The translations under genes and the position numbers were made by a program. A stretch of 21,414 nt of DNA from a virus, in the IMG/VR virus record IMGVR_UViG_3300007541_000276, positions 1 to 21,414 of that record. One strand, 5' to 3'. Shown piece by piece: positions 3,543 through 14,167 of this stretch. Under the pieces are notes generated by a model. The model saw only the letters and a program-made list of their open reading frames with translations, was not told the DNA's origin and did no database searches. Within the stretch, counting starts at the first letter, position 1; each line of letters begins with the position of its first letter.

Positions 3543-3600
3543 ACAATAATTTTTAAAAAAAGATTTGGTACTTTCAAAAGGTTATCTTATATTTATGAAG
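3543..3600 (+). promoter_or_regulatory. Bacteroidetes-type promoter for the noncoding RNA unit
   Basis: TTTG (3564-3567) and TATATTTA (3588-3595) have a 20-bp spacer, preceded by an A tract. From the -33 box to the -7 box it is almost the same sequence as the tRNA cluster 2 promoter (TACTTTCAAAAGGTTATC shared). The predicted start is about 3601. No convincing protein gene follows before the terminator at 4108. Confidence 0.88.
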
Positions 3601-3679
3601 TAATTAAGGCAAATATATAACCTTAAAATTTTCAATGAAAAATAAAGGTTTGGAAATTGACCTTAATATTTATTAATGA

Positions 3680-3755
3680 TACGGCGGGCGGATCGGTTGG
3701 CATCGAGGATAGTCTCATAAGCTATAAAAATGTGGTTCGATTCCACAGCGTCGCA
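3680..3755 (+). ncRNA. tRNA-like module with CAT-type loop and imperfect acceptor
   Basis: The T arm is perfect: TGTGG-TTCGATT-CCACA (3731-3747). The anticodon-like arm is ATAGT-CTCATAA-GCTAT (3709-3725), with the same loop as the genuine CAT tRNA at 1296. A D-like hairpin GAT-CGGTTGGC-ATC (3691-3704) holds the invariant GG. The acceptor region gives only CGGCG (3682-3686) / CGTCG (3749-3753) with mismatches on both sides, the linker from D arm to anticodon stem is 4 nt, and no CCA follows. This departs from the ten regular tRNAs nearby and suits a tRNA mimic or, less likely, a decayed initiator-like tRNA gene. Confidence 0.65.
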
Positions 3756-3759
3756 ACAA

Positions 3760-3771
3760 AGTTCTTTGATT
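3760..3771 (+). promoter_or_regulatory. boxA-like element inside the noncoding RNA unit
   Basis: AGTTCTTTGATT follows the tRNA-like module directly. It shares AGTTCTTTGA with the leaders of both tRNA clusters. It lies about 160 nt into the transcript, so an antitermination role is less clear than for the tRNA leaders; it also overlaps the TGATT/AATCA pairing. Confidence 0.35.
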
Positions 3772-4107
3772 ATTATCTGAAGCGGTTGTTAGAGTTACTT
3801 CAAACTATATACAATCAGAAAGGTGTTGGTACCGATCCCGCACCAAAAGTGACACGGTAACAGAATCACTTTAAAAGTCAGTACTCGGCCTTATGGACGG
3901 CTAGAAACGGGACTTCGACTCATTGGCGTAACCAATAATCCTTTAACAAAGGATTCTCAGATAGTAGTTAATGAATAAAAATATTTATCGGAGCGGCAGA
4001 GGGTGTTACTTCAAATTAGCCTATATTACACAGAAAACCCCACTCTCTTATTATTCCCGGTAATGATATTAAACTTCCACCTCTTTTGGTGTCTTTTATA
4101 TATCATG

Positions 4108-4136
4108 GGCCGGACTAACCTCCGGCCTTTTTTTTT
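4108..4136 (+). terminator. Strong intrinsic terminator closing the noncoding unit
   Basis: A 7-bp GC-rich stem GGCCGGA / TCCGGCC around CTAACC is followed by nine T residues. It is the strongest terminator in the window. The promoter of the Ro60 operon begins about 20 bp further on. Confidence 0.95.
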
Positions 4137-4206: not shown

Positions 4207-4620
4207 ATGAAAAGACACCCAATTAGAAGATTGCAGGTTCGGTTTCGTAGATGGAGGAGATCGATTGAAAAAAAATTTACTCCATGGCCTAAAAATAGTG
4301 AAGTACAAGAATTAGCTATTGGGATAGTTAGACGTGCAATAAATTATGATAATTCAAATTTATTAATTGCGCCAATATCAGGAGATCGATATATTCATTA
4401 CAATGATATTTTTATTAAGTTAGAACATCAGCGTGTTACTATTATTAATGGCACGTATACATATGATATTATTATAACGTCTAATGATTCTGAAAGACTG
4501 CAAACTATGTTTAATGCACGTCTTGAGCGCACGAGAAAAGATTGGGAAGAGGCTATTAGATCTAAAACGGAACGTAGTTTAAAAAATATTTATAACGAAT
4601 TACTAATTAATACTAAATAA
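4207..4620 (+). CDS. Small protein with Arg-rich N-terminus, in operon with the Ro60 gene
   Basis: This 137-residue protein starts with a very basic stretch (ten Arg/Lys within residues 2-23). A beta-rich middle follows (about 50-95: SGDRYIHYND, IIITSNDS) and a charged helical C-terminus (about 97-135). No family is recognised. It follows a dedicated promoter and ends 7 bp before the Ro60-type gene, so the two are co-transcribed. The arginine-rich segment is typical of nucleic-acid binding and makes it a candidate RNA-binding partner of the Ro60 particle, but this is inferred only from composition and position. The start ATG at 4207 is preceded by an A-rich leader with no Shine-Dalgarno. Codon use resembles its neighbours. 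Confidence 0.8.
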   Translation: MKRHPIRRLQVRFRRWRRSIEKKFTPWPKNSEVQELAIGIVRRAINYDNSNLLIAPISGDRYIHYNDIFIKLEHQRVTIINGTYTYDIIITSNDSERLQTMFNARLERTRKDWEEAIRSKTERSLKNIYNELLINTK

Positions 4621-4627
4621 TAAAGTT

Positions 4628-6244
4628 ATGTCAACTCTATCAAAATTTGCAGACAAAACAACATCAACTGTTAGACAACATGAAGATGCTGTAGTAGAAA
4701 ACTTTATGGGAGGAAACTCTTATAAATTGAATTCGTTACAAACACTTAAAATTGTAGCTGCGTCTTCTATATTTGGAGAGCCTCAATATTACCGTGACGG
4801 TGTCAATGCGTCAAAGACAATTAAAAATCATTCTACGATTTTAGAGTATTCGATTCTAAATGATTTGCTTAATGATAAGCGTTCTGTTGCAGATGTATTT
4901 ACTGAAGCTATTGATAACGCACTTTCATATGACTTTCAAGGAACTTTGAATTTAGCATTAGAATTGCGAAAAGATTATTTTATGCGTCTTAATCCTGCAG
5001 TAATTTATGTACGTGCTACATTGCATAAAGGTCGTGCTGAATTTAATGAAGCTAACCCAGGCGTAATGAAATCGATTGGTAAGGCAATTGCTCCTAGACC
5101 AGATGACATTACAAACCAGTTTGAATACTTTATGTATGTAAACAAAACTAAAAACGGTATGCCGTCTTTGTTAAAACGTACTTGGGCTGATGCTTTAGAA
5201 TCATATTCACGCTATCAGTTAAATAAGTATAAAGGTAAACGTTTAATTGACTTAGTTCGTTTATCTCACGCTAATAATGCTGACATCAATGAATTGATGA
5301 AAACTGGAACTTTAGAAGTTGAAGACACTGAACAAACTTGGGAGACACTTCGCTCTGCCGGTAAAACTTGGAGTGAAATTCTAAAACAAATTCGAATGCC
5401 ACATATGGCATTGTTGCGAAACCTTCGAGGTATTTGTTCTGAAATTAATGGTGCGGAATTATCAAAAGTAATGGAGCAACTTAAATCAGGAGTAGTAGGC
5501 GGAAAGCAATTCCCATTCCGTTATTGGAGTGCTTATAAGGCTATCAAGAATGCAGACATTAACAATAAAAGTTTAGTTCTTGATACTTTAGAAGAGTGTC
5601 TAGACATTGCAGTAGCGAATATGCCTAAGTTAAGTGGTAAAGTAGCTTGTTTGTCAGACAACTCTGGTTCTGCTTGGGGTACTATGAATTCAGAATATGG
5701 GCATGTCACTGTAGCTGAAATTGCAAACTTATCTTCATTAATCACTGCGATGCAGGCAGATGAAGGATATGTTGGAGTATTTGGTGACCAGCTTTCATTA
5801 CAAGGAGTTTCTAAACGAAATGGATTGTTAACTCAATTAGATGAAACTTCTAACCGAGGCCGCAATCAAGGACAAGCTACTGAAAATGGAATTTGGCTAT
5901 TTTGGGATGATGCTATTACGAATAAAAAGCATTATGATACCGTATTTATCTATTCAGATATGCAGGCTGGTCATGGTCGTCTTTATGGTACCGATTCTTC
6001 AAAATATAAAGAGTTTATACATCAAGGTAGAGGTAGCTATATTGACGTCTTGGCATTGGTTGAAAAATATCGTAAGACAGTTAACCCAAAAGTCAATGTA
6101 TTTTCTGTGCAAGTTGCCGGATATGATAACTCAGTATTGCCAGAGAACCTATATAGAGGTGCTATATTAGCCGGCTGGACAGGTAAAGAGCCTGTATATG
6201 CAAAGGCTATTATTGACACTTGGAATCAAATAGAATCTAAGTAA
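4628..6244 (+). CDS. rsr: Ro60/TROVE-family RNA-binding protein (Rsr-like)
   Basis: At 538 residues it matches the usual length of Ro60 proteins. The N-terminal two thirds are helical-repeat (HEAT-like TROVE) sequence, with the family-like segments KYKGKRLIDLVRLSHANNA (200-218) and MPHMALLRNLRGI (257-269). The C-terminal third is a von Willebrand A domain: LSDNSGS (342-348) gives the MIDAS residues D344, S346 and S348, with a later YSDMQ (442-446). Known Ro60 proteins are rings that bind misfolded RNA ends in the central hole and Y RNA on the outer surface; in bacteria they guide exonucleases such as PNPase in rRNA maturation and stress RNA decay. The gene follows a small basic protein by 7 bp and lies downstream of a noncoding RNA unit with a tRNA-like fold. 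No RtcB/RtcA ligase or exonuclease is present in the window. Confidence 0.9.
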   Translation: MSTLSKFADKTTSTVRQHEDAVVENFMGGNSYKLNSLQTLKIVAASSIFGEPQYYRDGVNASKTIKNHSTILEYSILNDLLNDKRSVADVFTEAIDNALSYDFQGTLNLALELRKDYFMRLNPAVIYVRATLHKGRAEFNEANPGVMKSIGKAIAPRPDDITNQFEYFMYVNKTKNGMPSLLKRTWADALESYSRYQLNKYKGKRLIDLVRLSHANNADINELMKTGTLEVEDTEQTWETLRSAGKTWSEILKQIRMPHMALLRNLRGICSEINGAELSKVMEQLKSGVVGGKQFPFRYWSAYKAIKNADINNKSLVLDTLEECLDIAVANMPKLSGKVACLSDNSGSAWGTMNSEYGHVTVAEIANLSSLITAMQADEGYVGVFGDQLSLQGVSKRNGLLTQLDETSNRGRNQGQATENGIWLFWDDAITNKKHYDTVFIYSDMQAGHGRLYGTDSSKYKEFIHQGRGSYIDVLALVEKYRKTVNPKVNVFSVQVAGYDNSVLPENLYRGAILAGWTGKEPVYAKAIIDTWNQIESK

Positions 6245-10514: not shown

Positions 10515-11438
10515 ATGACAAATTTAGGTTACGCTTGTATCAACATGACCTTAGGTAAGAAACGAATTCTTACCGGTCGCGCGATGCGTAAGGCAACGTT
10601 AGAAGAAAAGGGCTTAGCTCACGCTTCTGAATTAGCGCTGCAGAACGTGTTAGATTTAGAGACTATTCTCAAATGGAATGTAGATAATGATATTTACTTT
10701 TTCCGTTTAGGTAGTGATATTATTCCATGGGGAGATAAGATTGATATCACTCAACTCCCTGACTATAATGCAATTTGTGCGTCGCTTAAGCGCAGCGGCG
10801 ACTATGCAGCAGAGCATGGCATACGTATTACTACCCATCCAGGTCCATTTAATTTATTAGCCTCGCCTCGCGAAGAAGTTATACAAAGCACTATTAGTCA
10901 TCTAGAAATGCATGGCACGATATTTGACTTAATGGGCTTATCACGTAGCCATTATAATAAGATTAATATACATGTAGGTGCTACTTATGGAGATAAGTAT
11001 TCAGCTGCAGAGACTTGGTGTAGTAACTTTCTCAGGCTATCCGAGGGCGTCCGAGCCCGTTTAACTGTTGAAAACGATGACAAAGCATCGATGTACTCTG
11101 TAAAAGATCTATATGAATTAATCTATTCAAAAGTAGGAGTGCCAATTGTTTTTGATTACCATCATCATAAGTTTTGTGACGGCGGTATGTCAGAAGAAGA
11201 GGCGTTAAACTTGGCCATTTCAACTTGGAATGATGTCAAGCCAGTTGTGCATTATTCAGAGTCGAAATCATTACACGAGTCAAATGATAAACTCAATCCG
11301 CGGGCGCACTCCGACTATATTACGGACTATATAGATCCGTATAATTTAGATATTGATATTATGATCGAGGCGAAGGCAAAAGAGCTCGCCCTTTTGGAGT
11401 ATCGTCGGCTACATAAAATTTCTTTCGGAAAAAGATAA
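10515..11438 (+). CDS. uvsE: UV damage endonuclease (UvsE/UvdE)
   Basis: This 307-residue TIM-barrel repair nuclease has the standard length. Family motifs occur in order: LGYACIN (4-10), FFRLGSDIIPWG (62-73), THPGPFN (107-113), NIHVGATYGDK (151-161), VENDDK (185-190), VFDYHHHKF (212-220) and VVHYSES (244-250). The expected metal ligands are all visible: H108, H153, E186, D214, H217, H246 and E285. The family nicks DNA immediately 5' of UV photoproducts and some abasic or other lesions, starting an alternative excision repair. It fits a phage exposed to sunlight. It has its own promoter and is followed by a 99-bp AT-only gap. Confidence 0.96.
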   Translation: MTNLGYACINMTLGKKRILTGRAMRKATLEEKGLAHASELALQNVLDLETILKWNVDNDIYFFRLGSDIIPWGDKIDITQLPDYNAICASLKRSGDYAAEHGIRITTHPGPFNLLASPREEVIQSTISHLEMHGTIFDLMGLSRSHYNKINIHVGATYGDKYSAAETWCSNFLRLSEGVRARLTVENDDKASMYSVKDLYELIYSKVGVPIVFDYHHHKFCDGGMSEEEALNLAISTWNDVKPVVHYSESKSLHESNDKLNPRAHSDYITDYIDPYNLDIDIMIEAKAKELALLEYRRLHKISFGKR

Positions 11439-13501: not shown

Positions 13502-14167
13502 ATGATTAAATCTGTTAAGAATAACCCTGGTATGGGAGTATATGATGATGATATGGCAGAAAGCCCAAAAACTAAAAGAAAAGTATTTAAACAAACTGAT
13601 GAGCTAGACGAATCAGAGCGCGATCCTAGGTTTGACGAAATTGAGTACGGAATTAATATTGACGATTCTGTTATTTATTTACATGGCGATATCATGATGG
13701 GCAACTTGTTTGATTTTATAGCTAAAGTGCGAATTATATTAGCTAATCGCCCAGAAGAAAAAGCAAACGATCCTATTAATGTATTATTAAATACAAACGG
13801 AGGAGATGTATATGAGGCCAATGGTATTATTGATTATATACAAAGTTTGTCTGTACCCGTAAATATTATCGCTCGAGGCCGAGCAATGAGTGCTGGGGCA
13901 ATGATATTAATTGCTGGTACCGGTATTCGTGCTGCATCAAAATCGACAACTATTATGTTTCATGAAGCATCAGCTGAGTTATATGGTAAGACTGCTGACC
14001 TTAAAGCAAATGCCGATCACATCGATGAACTTGAAGAAGAGTTTTATATACAAATGGCTTCAAAAACAAAACAAGATAAAGAGTTTTGGCAAAAGTCATG
14101 TAGAAAAGATTTTTATTTAACTGCACAAAAAGCATTAGAGTTAGGCGTAATTGATAAAATTGTATAA
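13502..14167 (+). CDS. ClpP-like serine protease
   Basis: This 221-residue protein has a charged N-terminal extension (1-45) and then a ClpP/crotonase-type fold: LNTNGGDVYEANGIIDYIQ (96-114), the nucleophile motif GRAMSAGAM with S130, and IMFHEAS with catalytic H154. The C-terminal block ALELGVIDKI (211-220) is the normal ClpP ending. The third member of the triad is not clear: the usual Asp position before F204 seems shifted. ClpP proteins form barrel-shaped proteases fed by ATPases such as ClpX; phage versions may act as prohead proteases or retarget host proteolysis. No Clp ATPase is in the window, and the gene is not next to capsid genes. It heads an operon with an HD-domain protein (3 bp gap) and the late sigma factor. 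Confidence 0.88.
   Translation: MIKSVKNNPGMGVYDDDMAESPKTKRKVFKQTDELDESERDPRFDEIEYGINIDDSVIYLHGDIMMGNLFDFIAKVRIILANRPEEKANDPINVLLNTNGGDVYEANGIIDYIQSLSVPVNIIARGRAMSAGAMILIAGTGIRAASKSTTIMFHEASAELYGKTADLKANADHIDELEEEFYIQMASKTKQDKEFWQKSCRKDFYLTAQKALELGVIDKIV

What the first reader, a model, noticed from the sequence alone, without database searches (positions are those of the whole stretch)
3601..4136. About 535-nt noncoding transcript with many perfect hairpins
The unit has a strong promoter and a nine-T terminator but no credible protein gene, and carries at least seven stems, two of them adjacent and perfect (3922-3936, 3937-3955). Its size is beyond most Y RNAs and approaches large ornate phage RNAs such as GOLLD or ROOL, which also occur beside phage tRNAs. 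It may be a new large RNA class.
Basis: partly seen in the sequence, partly recalled or inferred. Interest (0 to 1): 0.8.

Follow-up and report, generated by a model that had tools for sequence, protein, structure and literature searches.

The report
Phage double Y RNA beside Ro60
This phage makes a long non-coding RNA carrying two copies of a conserved stem next to its own gene for a Ro60-like RNA-binding protein, so it looks like an oversized, two-headed version of the small Y RNAs that partner Ro60 in bacteria and animals.

Summary
The key lies outside its coordinates: a Ro60/TROVE gene at 4628-6244 (predicted fold matches Ro60 and Rsr).

The RNA contains two copies of one module: a closing stem, AGCGG, a second stem, UUACUUC, a loop, then AUUCUC. 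Copies are Y1 (3767-3971) and Y2 (3978-4071). The module covaries strongly. It lies on the Ro strand in 121 of 121 matches around Ro genes. In 20 long viral records, 51 of 56 matches lie within about 10 kb of Ro. Bacillus phage G has seven. It also sits upstream of bacterial Ro genes.

Y1 holds an extra conserved domain. A boxA-like antitermination site precedes it (24 of 27 loci) and a terminator separates it from Ro (27 of 27). It matches no Rfam family, including ROOL and GOLLD.

Best reading: a tandem phage Y RNA that tethers Ro60. Ro binding and function are inferred. The perfect hairpin 3937-3955 is not conserved. New variant of a known kind.

The parts
3557..3595 (+). promoter-like element, one of a repeated family in this phage
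   Evidence: exact pattern matches at 3557, 4148, 6293, 6605 against 0.00 expected; looser copies at 1044 and 2544
3688..3755 (+). tRNA-like element with intact T arm and CAU-type anticodon arm, defective acceptor/D arms; degenerate tRNA or tRNA mimic
   Evidence: Rfam tRNA 20.9 bits, below the 29-bit cut-off, E 0.017 for 106 bases; not called by ARAGORN
3761..3769 (+). boxA-like antitermination element GUUCUUUGA
   Evidence: GTTCTTTAA with <=1 mismatch 18-30 nt before the Y1 core in 24 of 27 loci; about 0.03 expected per locus; similar sites in a Flavobacterium 16S leader and 16S-23S spacer
3767..3971 (+). Y1 module: closing stem P1 3772-3780/3957-3965, P2 3786-3794/3941-3949, with a large insert in its loop
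   Evidence: R1 match 47.7 bits, E 4.2e-10 in the window, not in the seed; covariation on 24 homologues
3796..3940 (+). conserved insert domain inside Y1, incl. covarying hairpin 3922-3936 and helix about 3851-3858/3881-3890
   Evidence: alignment A3, helices 3 and 4
3978..4071 (+). Y2 module: P1 3985-3991/4057-4063, P2 3998-4005/4041-4048, short loop
   Evidence: R1 match 71.6 bits (one of the 36 seed sequences); covariation; pair letters
4107..4136 (+). intrinsic terminator
   Evidence: terminator-like site between Y2 and Ro in 27 of 27 loci against 0.3 in shuffles
4207..4620 (+). 137-aa ORF between the RNA and the Ro gene, no known family
4628..6244 (+). Ro60/Rsr-like TROVE protein, the inferred protein partner
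   Evidence: phrog_850 E 3e-44; Pfam TROVE E 1e-7; model matches 9kop Z 25.1, phage phiLo Ro60 9l5y Z 21.8, human Ro60 9nen Z 20.5, D. radiodurans Rsr 2nvo Z 19.8

Best explanation
The unit makes an untranslated RNA that is the Y RNA partner of the phage's own Ro60 protein. It holds two Ro-type stem modules in tandem (Y1 and Y2), so it should tether two Ro60 molecules, or be cut into two Y RNAs. Shown here: a stand-alone transcription unit by sequence signals; two copies of a covarying module (P1 - AGCGG/UAUUC internal loop - P2 - UUACUUC); strong linkage of that module to Ro genes in phages and bacteria; a conserved insert domain in Y1; a boxA-like site upstream, which by inference would recruit Nus factors and keep RNA polymerase from stopping on this untranslated, structured RNA. 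Inferred: that P1 with its internal loop is the Ro60-binding site; that Y loops and the Y1 insert are the effector end that brings a nuclease or substrate RNA to the Ro ring, as YrlA brings PNPase in the published RYPER particle (PMC8394870); and that the particle reshapes RNA decay or quality control in the infected cell. My estimates: Ro-partner Y RNA 0.85; used as one uncut two-Ro scaffold 0.4; nuclease-tethering role 0.4.
For: Ro gene two genes downstream. Covariation: 36 modules, score 0.528 against 0.201 +/- 0.017 shuffled (0 of 500) and at most 0.265 when slid; 24 Y1 domains, 0.504 against 0.221 +/- 0.014 and at most 0.207. With the 3' element chosen by sequence alone, at least 4 of 5 variable P1 pairs form in 53% of 101 cognate modules against 11% of mismatched halves. 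All 121 model matches in 68 Ro-locus sources lie on the Ro strand (at most 36 were seed). 51 of 56 matches in 20 long records lie within about 10 kb of Ro, all on its strand (positions). Search by RNA pattern: Ro in 26 of 35 records that hold a structured module, against 0 of 79 with the bare pattern. Module beside bacterial Ro in 40 of 78 loci. Terminators 27 of 27; boxA 24 of 27. Some relatives carry tRNA-like loops inside modules.
Against: No binding or expression data. Thermodynamic folding of the window prefers the local hairpin 3937-3955 to Y1 P2 by about 7-8 kcal/mol, and gives P2 probability 0. RNAalifold on A1 alone predicts only the inner 5 pairs of P1, not P2; one of the five measures (pairs with a change on both sides, 16 against 14.2) is not significant. 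12 of 61 Ro loci have no match, 4 of them because the locus begins at the Ro gene. 9 of 35 structured records show no Ro, most of them fragments (one is 214 kb). I could not compare with the experimentally tested Y RNAs of Salmonella or D. radiodurans; two relatives with a Ro gene (Deinococcus taeanensis L192, Nitratidesulfovibrio phage L194) gave no match, nor did Listeria phage P100. The window's tRNA-like element is sub-threshold and lies outside the modules.
Confidence: 0.8

Rival explanations
1. The transcript is only a precursor: nucleases cut it between Y1 and Y2 (and behind the tRNA-like element) into separate, ordinary-sized Y RNAs, each bound by one Ro60.
For: Y2 alone spans about 94 nt, the size of ordinary bacterial Y RNAs (90-150 nt, PMC8394870); 18-40 nt separate the Y1 end from the Y2 core in 27 loci; a tRNA-like element or a true tRNA precedes boxA in the window and in L018.
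Against: No cleavage site could be tested; the order Y1-Y2 and its spacing are kept in 27 loci, which one would not need if they were independent products.
Confidence: 0.4
2. A cis-acting leader: the modules are a 5' UTR element by which Ro60 regulates its own mRNA.
For: In most close relatives the modules lie just upstream of the Ro gene (150-240 nt from the Y2 core to the Ro start in 21 of 27).
Against: A terminator lies between in 27 of 27 loci; here a second promoter-like element and an ORF also intervene. Modules lie downstream of Ro in L036, L037, L040 and L041 and 11 to 100 kb away in G021, G023 and G033.
Confidence: 0.05
3. A GOLLD/ROOL-like ornate RNA that assembles into a protein-free cage.
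For: Size, multi-helix fold, a phage with tRNA islands, and ROOL next to tRNAs in relative L037.
Against: No Rfam ROOL or GOLLD match here while L037 gives ROOL at 284 bits as a separate element; the conserved core is a Ro-linked repeat module.
Confidence: 0.04
4. A decoy: the tandem modules soak up the host's own Ro60/Rsr or a host nuclease, rather than serve the phage Ro60.
For: The module is shared with bacterial Ro loci, including Bacteroidota (L251, L252), so host and phage Ro could cross-bind.
Against: The phage carries its own Ro gene beside the modules in almost every long record.
Confidence: 0.1

Closest known systems
Bacterial Y RNAs (YrlA of Salmonella, Y RNA of D. radiodurans; RYPER particle)
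   Same: Encoded beside a Ro60/Rsr gene; end-pairing basal stem; variable, tRNA-like or elaborate loop; stand-alone RNA. The module itself occurs beside bacterial Ro genes.
   Different: Published YrlA is 90-150 nt with one stem and one tRNA-like domain (PMC8394870, passages read). Here about 540 nt, two stems in tandem, a non-tRNA insert in Y1, boxA leader; tRNA-like element outside the modules and sub-threshold. Direct comparison with tested Y RNA sequences was not possible.
Vertebrate Y RNAs
   Same: Ro60 partner with a lower stem and internal loop; conserved GGUCCGA (PMC11277228, passages read) resembles the module's UCCGA-AG.
   Different: Vertebrate site is a 7-bp helix with one bulged C and a 3-nt bulge (PMC4726728, passages read); the module has P1, a roughly 5-by-7 internal loop, then P2.
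Putative Y RNAs of Listeria phage CKA15
   Same: Abundant phage non-coding RNAs near an Rsr-like gene, proposed as Y RNAs (PMC12282133, passages read).
   Different: The passages read show no sequence family; model R1 finds nothing in related phage P100.
ROOL and GOLLD RNAs
   Same: Large ornate phage RNAs near tRNA islands (PMC12286853, abstract and passages read).
   Different: No Rfam match; here the conserved core is a repeated Ro-linked module.

Membership tests
Bacterial Y RNA (YrlA-type) | encoded with a Ro60/Rsr orthologue | tested here: met
   TROVE protein at 4628-6244, fold matches Rsr and Ro60; module-Ro linkage
Bacterial Y RNA (YrlA-type) | basal stem formed by the two ends of the RNA (module) | tested here: met
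   P1 and P2 covary in Y1 and Y2
Bacterial Y RNA (YrlA-type) | stem is bound by Ro60/Rsr | not testable with these tools
   needs a binding assay
Bacterial Y RNA (YrlA-type) | tRNA-like domain within the loop | tested here: inconclusive
   window element 3688-3755 at 20.9 bits lies outside the modules; in L036 and L040 tRNA-model matches fall inside module loops
Bacterial Y RNA (YrlA-type) | one module, 90-150 nt | tested here: not met
   two modules (205-nt and 94-nt matches) in a unit of about 540 nt; hence filed as a variant
Vertebrate Y RNA | 7-bp lower stem with bulged C and opposite 3-nt bulge, GGUCCGA | tested here: not met
   geometry of A1 differs; no Rfam match
ROOL / GOLLD | match to the Rfam covariance model | tested here: not met
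   none at gathering or E <= 10; positive control ROOL in L037
tmRNA | tRNA-like domain plus tag frame, ARAGORN/Rfam match | tested here: not met
Ro60/TROVE protein (4628-6244) | TROVE domain and VWA domain with DxSxS motif | tested here: met
   Pfam TROVE above cut-off; D344, S346, S348 invariant in 20 sequences; fold

The most novel reading that the evidence does not exclude
Large phages carry multivalent Y RNAs: modular scaffolds with two to seven Ro-binding modules, made under rRNA-type boxA antitermination, some with tRNA-mimic loops and, in this lineage, a conserved ornate insert. They would gather several Ro60 rings on one RNA or from one locus, forming a Ro particle unlike the one-ring Ro-Y RNP, perhaps to steer RNA decay or guard the phage's tRNAs during infection.
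Probability: 0.4. Interest if true: 0.78.

Novelty: new variant of a known kind. Interest (0 to 1): 0.62.

Why it matters
It gives a sequence-and-structure definition of the Ro-associated module across phages and bacteria (no Rfam family other than tRNA overlapped it in the 10 viral and 14 bacterial, phage or plasmid loci scanned). It also provides a cultured test case (Bacillus phage G) for what phages do with Ro60, a protein best known as a human autoantigen. Tandem modules would make the question 'one Ro per Y RNA, or many?' directly testable, and the boxA link suggests that phages borrow the rRNA antitermination machinery to make long structured RNAs.

Tried and rejected
New large RNA class of the GOLLD/ROOL kind: rejected on Rfam. 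Hidden protein gene: rejected. Plain DNA similarity to known phages: only short matches, mostly to tRNA genes such as T5 tRNA-fMet, best E 0.06. Cis-regulatory leader of Ro: rejected on terminators, downstream and remote modules. The perfect hairpin 3937-3955 as a conserved element: rejected. Deinococcus taeanensis (L192, 2700-2960): by eye two tandem stems with UUCCUUC and GUUCUC upstream of its TROVE gene, but no R1 match, so not claimed. Listeria phage P100, chosen because CKA15 is P100-like: no match. A Y module of L237 found nothing in named phages. boxA with at most one mismatch was not found in the Flavobacterium 16S leader; two-mismatch forms of the longer pattern with the same ATATTGG tail were, so 'boxA' rests on position, tail and recall. 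No held paper on the Thermus phage phiLo Ro60 turned up. Two papers that would allow direct comparison (Chen 2013, Chen 2014) are not held. Literature searches that showed no phage tandem Y RNA; subscription papers are mostly absent, so novelty is not proven.

Rows dropped: A1 took 36 of 42 short modules listed (6 near-duplicates left out). Before that I skipped entries of seven loci and 17 hand-listed modules, most of which had a 3' element mis-assigned by the sequence-only rule. A3 took 24 of 27 loci (near-duplicates L020, L032, L047 left out). The 26-of-35 count is partly circular, since many of those records supplied the seed; counting only records that gave no seed and were not, Ro is in 5 of 14 (L098, L135/L139, L138, L149, L106) against 0 of 79. 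One unstructured stretch (L175) was left out because it lies in L007's record, which has Ro.

Full report
1. The observation. The window is a 21,414-base virus record with nine complete tRNA genes plus a partial tRNA match at its start. Upstream of the reported unit a 39-nt promoter-like element (3557-3595) shares one exact pattern with three other places in the window, against 0.00 expected. The unit ends in a GC-rich stem and a T run (4107-4136). The strand folds 4 standard deviations better than 100 shuffles, and perfect hairpins are 11 against 4.6 expected, reached by 9 of 300 shuffles. No frame is open across the homologous part in any of 27 loci.

2. The neighbour that explains it. The second gene downstream (4628-6244) is a TROVE/Ro60 protein: phrog_850 at E 3e-44 and Pfam TROVE at E 1e-7. 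An AlphaFold model (mean pLDDT 81) matches a TROVE crystal structure (9kop, Z 25.1), the Ro60 of Thermus phage phiLo (9l5y, 21.8), human Ro60 (9nen, 20.5) and Deinococcus radiodurans Rsr (2nvo, 19.8); other VWA proteins start at 10.8. The DxSxS metal-site motif is invariant in 20 sequences.

3. A repeated module. 61 viral loci with a relative of this Ro were fetched. Single-sequence nhmmer found related RNA just upstream of Ro in many of them. Reading them showed a module repeated within each locus: [P1 ..YGA] AGCGG [P2] UUACUUC .. loop .. [P2'] UAUUC [UCR.. P1'].

4. Evidence that the module is a real structure. Taking the 3' element by sequence alone, at least 4 of 5 variable P1 pairs form in 53% of 101 cognate modules but 11% of mismatched halves; a P2 helix of 8 or more bp occurs in 40% against 5%. 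On 36 modules aligned by sequence only (A1) the named structure has a covariation score of 0.528, against 0.201 +/- 0.017 in shuffles (0 of 500) and at most 0.265 when slid; 151 cells have both sides changed against 60. One measure, the number of pairs with a change on both sides, was not significant (16 against 14.2), and RNAalifold on its own returned only the five inner pairs of P1.

5. A covariance model (R1) finds both modules in the window and nothing else above noise: Y2 3978-4071 at 71.6 bits (a seed sequence) and Y1 3767-3971 at 47.7 bits, E 4.2e-10 (not in the seed). The next best is 12.6 bits.

6. Linkage to Ro. Over 68 sources R1 gives 121 matches at E <= 0.05, all on the strand of Ro (at most 36 were seed). 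49 of the 61 loci have at least one match; of the 12 without, 4 loci begin at the Ro gene. In 20 whole records (4.4 Mb by my sum) 19 have matches, 56 in all, and 51 lie within about 10 kb of Ro; the five others are one at G023 (11 kb), one at G021 (65 kb) and three at G033 (100 kb) (distances worked out from the coordinates). In Bacillus phage G all seven lie at 405-413 kb of 497 kb, around gp540, the TROVE gene at 407.4-409.0 kb. A search by the bare RNA pattern, without reference to Ro, returned 120 stretches. 40 stretches in 35 records hold a structured module at E <= 0.01, and 26 of these 35 records encode Ro (and shared contigs). Of 79 unstructured stretches tested, 0 do. Excluding records behind the seed, it is 5 of 14 against 0 of 79.

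7. The module is also bacterial. Of 78 bacterial Ro loci, 40 have at least one match at E <= 0.5; 57 of 61 matches are on the Ro strand, most just upstream of Ro. Flavobacterium sp. 9AF has one module and a Chitinophagales genome three. In the 14 loci scanned with Rfam no family other than tRNA reached its cut-off over the modules. This is what a phage and bacterial Y RNA family should look like.

8. Anatomy of the window RNA. (a) A tRNA-like element 3688-3755 with good anticodon and T arms but a poor acceptor scores 20.9 bits, under the 29-bit cut-off. A true tRNA stands at a similar place in L018 (4788-4861), so it may be a decayed tRNA. (b) GUUCUUUGA at 3761-3769: GTTCTTTAA with at most one mismatch lies 18-30 nt before the Y1 core in 24 of 27 loci, where about 0.03 per locus is expected. 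A Flavobacterium rRNA operon has the related GTTCATAGACATATTGG 127 nt before 16S and GTTCATTGACATATTGA just behind 16S, the two places where boxA is expected (recalled). Antitermination would fit a long untranslated RNA; this is inference. (c) Y1 with P1 and P2 and a conserved insert: on 24 homologues the score is 0.504 against 0.221 +/- 0.014, at most 0.207 when slid; the hairpin 3922-3936 has both-side changes in all five pairs. (d) Y2, a short module. (e) A terminator, present between Y2 and Ro in 27 of 27 loci against 0.3 in shuffles.

9. A result against the model. Energy folding of the window alone prefers the perfect hairpin 3937-3955 over Y1 P2 (-102.3 or -103.2 against -95.2 kcal/mol) and gives P2 no probability. 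But that hairpin is 8 bp only here and 3-5 bp in the other 26 loci, while P2 is 5-10 bp in all 27. I take P2 as the conserved state, perhaps held by Ro60, with the hairpin as a competitor peculiar to this sequence. Probing would decide.

10. How it may work. In bacteria YrlA tethers the ring Rsr by its basal stem and PNPase by its tRNA-like domain (PMC8394870, passages read). By analogy P1 with its internal loop would hold Ro60, and the loops would hold an effector. In relatives L036 and L040 tRNA-model matches fall inside module loops, as expected of that design; in the window's lineage the Y1 loop carries a different conserved domain. Two modules on one transcript would place two Ro60 molecules side by side, unless the RNA is cut. 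None of this has been tested by experiment.

11. Comparison. Published bacterial Y RNAs are 90-150 nt with one stem and one tRNA-like domain (PMC8394870). The vertebrate Ro site has another geometry (PMC4726728, passages read), though its GGUCCGA (PMC11277228, passages read) resembles the module's UCCGA-AG. Listeria phage CKA15 was proposed to have Y RNAs beside an Rsr (PMC12282133, passages read), but R1 does not find the module in P100. A jumbo-phage review notes TROVE proteins in phages and their tRNA-like partner in cells (PMC7824862, passages read). I found no description of tandem phage Y RNAs in the searches listed under Tried and rejected, which cover open-licence papers only. I therefore file it as a new variant of a known kind.

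Noticed in passing
window 1044, 2544, 3560, 4151, 6296, 6608: A repeated promoter-like element AAGATTTGGTACTTTGAAA..CTTATCTTTA in six places, all on the + strand; likely the promoter class of this phage.
   Followed up: partly
24 of 27 loci, 18-30 nt before the Y1 core; window 3761-3769: rRNA-type boxA-like antitermination element in front of a phage non-coding RNA.
   Followed up: partly
L037 3881-4524: A ROOL RNA (Rfam 284 bits) among tRNAs in the same record as a Ro gene and a tandem module array.
   Followed up: no
L191 (Bacillus phage G) 3773-11434: Seven Ro-type modules in the neighbourhood of gp540, with no RNA feature listed in the record at the module positions.
   Followed up: partly
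L100, L125, L129, L141, L068, L082: A recurring solo module (CAAGATTAGAAGCGG..) away from the Ro array, in some genomes that also have the array, suggesting extra unlinked Y RNAs.
   Followed up: no
L036 7701-8041, L040 7766-8276: tRNA-model matches inside module loops: tRNA mimics enclosed by the Y stem.
   Followed up: partly
L237 1700-2200: By eye, three repeats with a T-arm-like piece followed by a D-arm-like piece within weak modules, as in a circularly permuted tRNA mimic.
   Followed up: no
L192 2700-2960: Deinococcus taeanensis plasmid: by eye two tandem stems upstream of TROVE, the first with a tRNA-like loop; not found by R1.
   Followed up: partly
L193 6554-6635, 7202-7286: Pseudomonas sp. 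FeN3W 909-kb plasmid has a Ro gene and two modules 2-3 kb downstream of it.
   Followed up: no
window 10515-11438, 13502-14167, 422-955: Endonuclease family phrog_8420, ClpP-like head maturation protease family and SLT transglycosylase genes in the same window.
   Followed up: no
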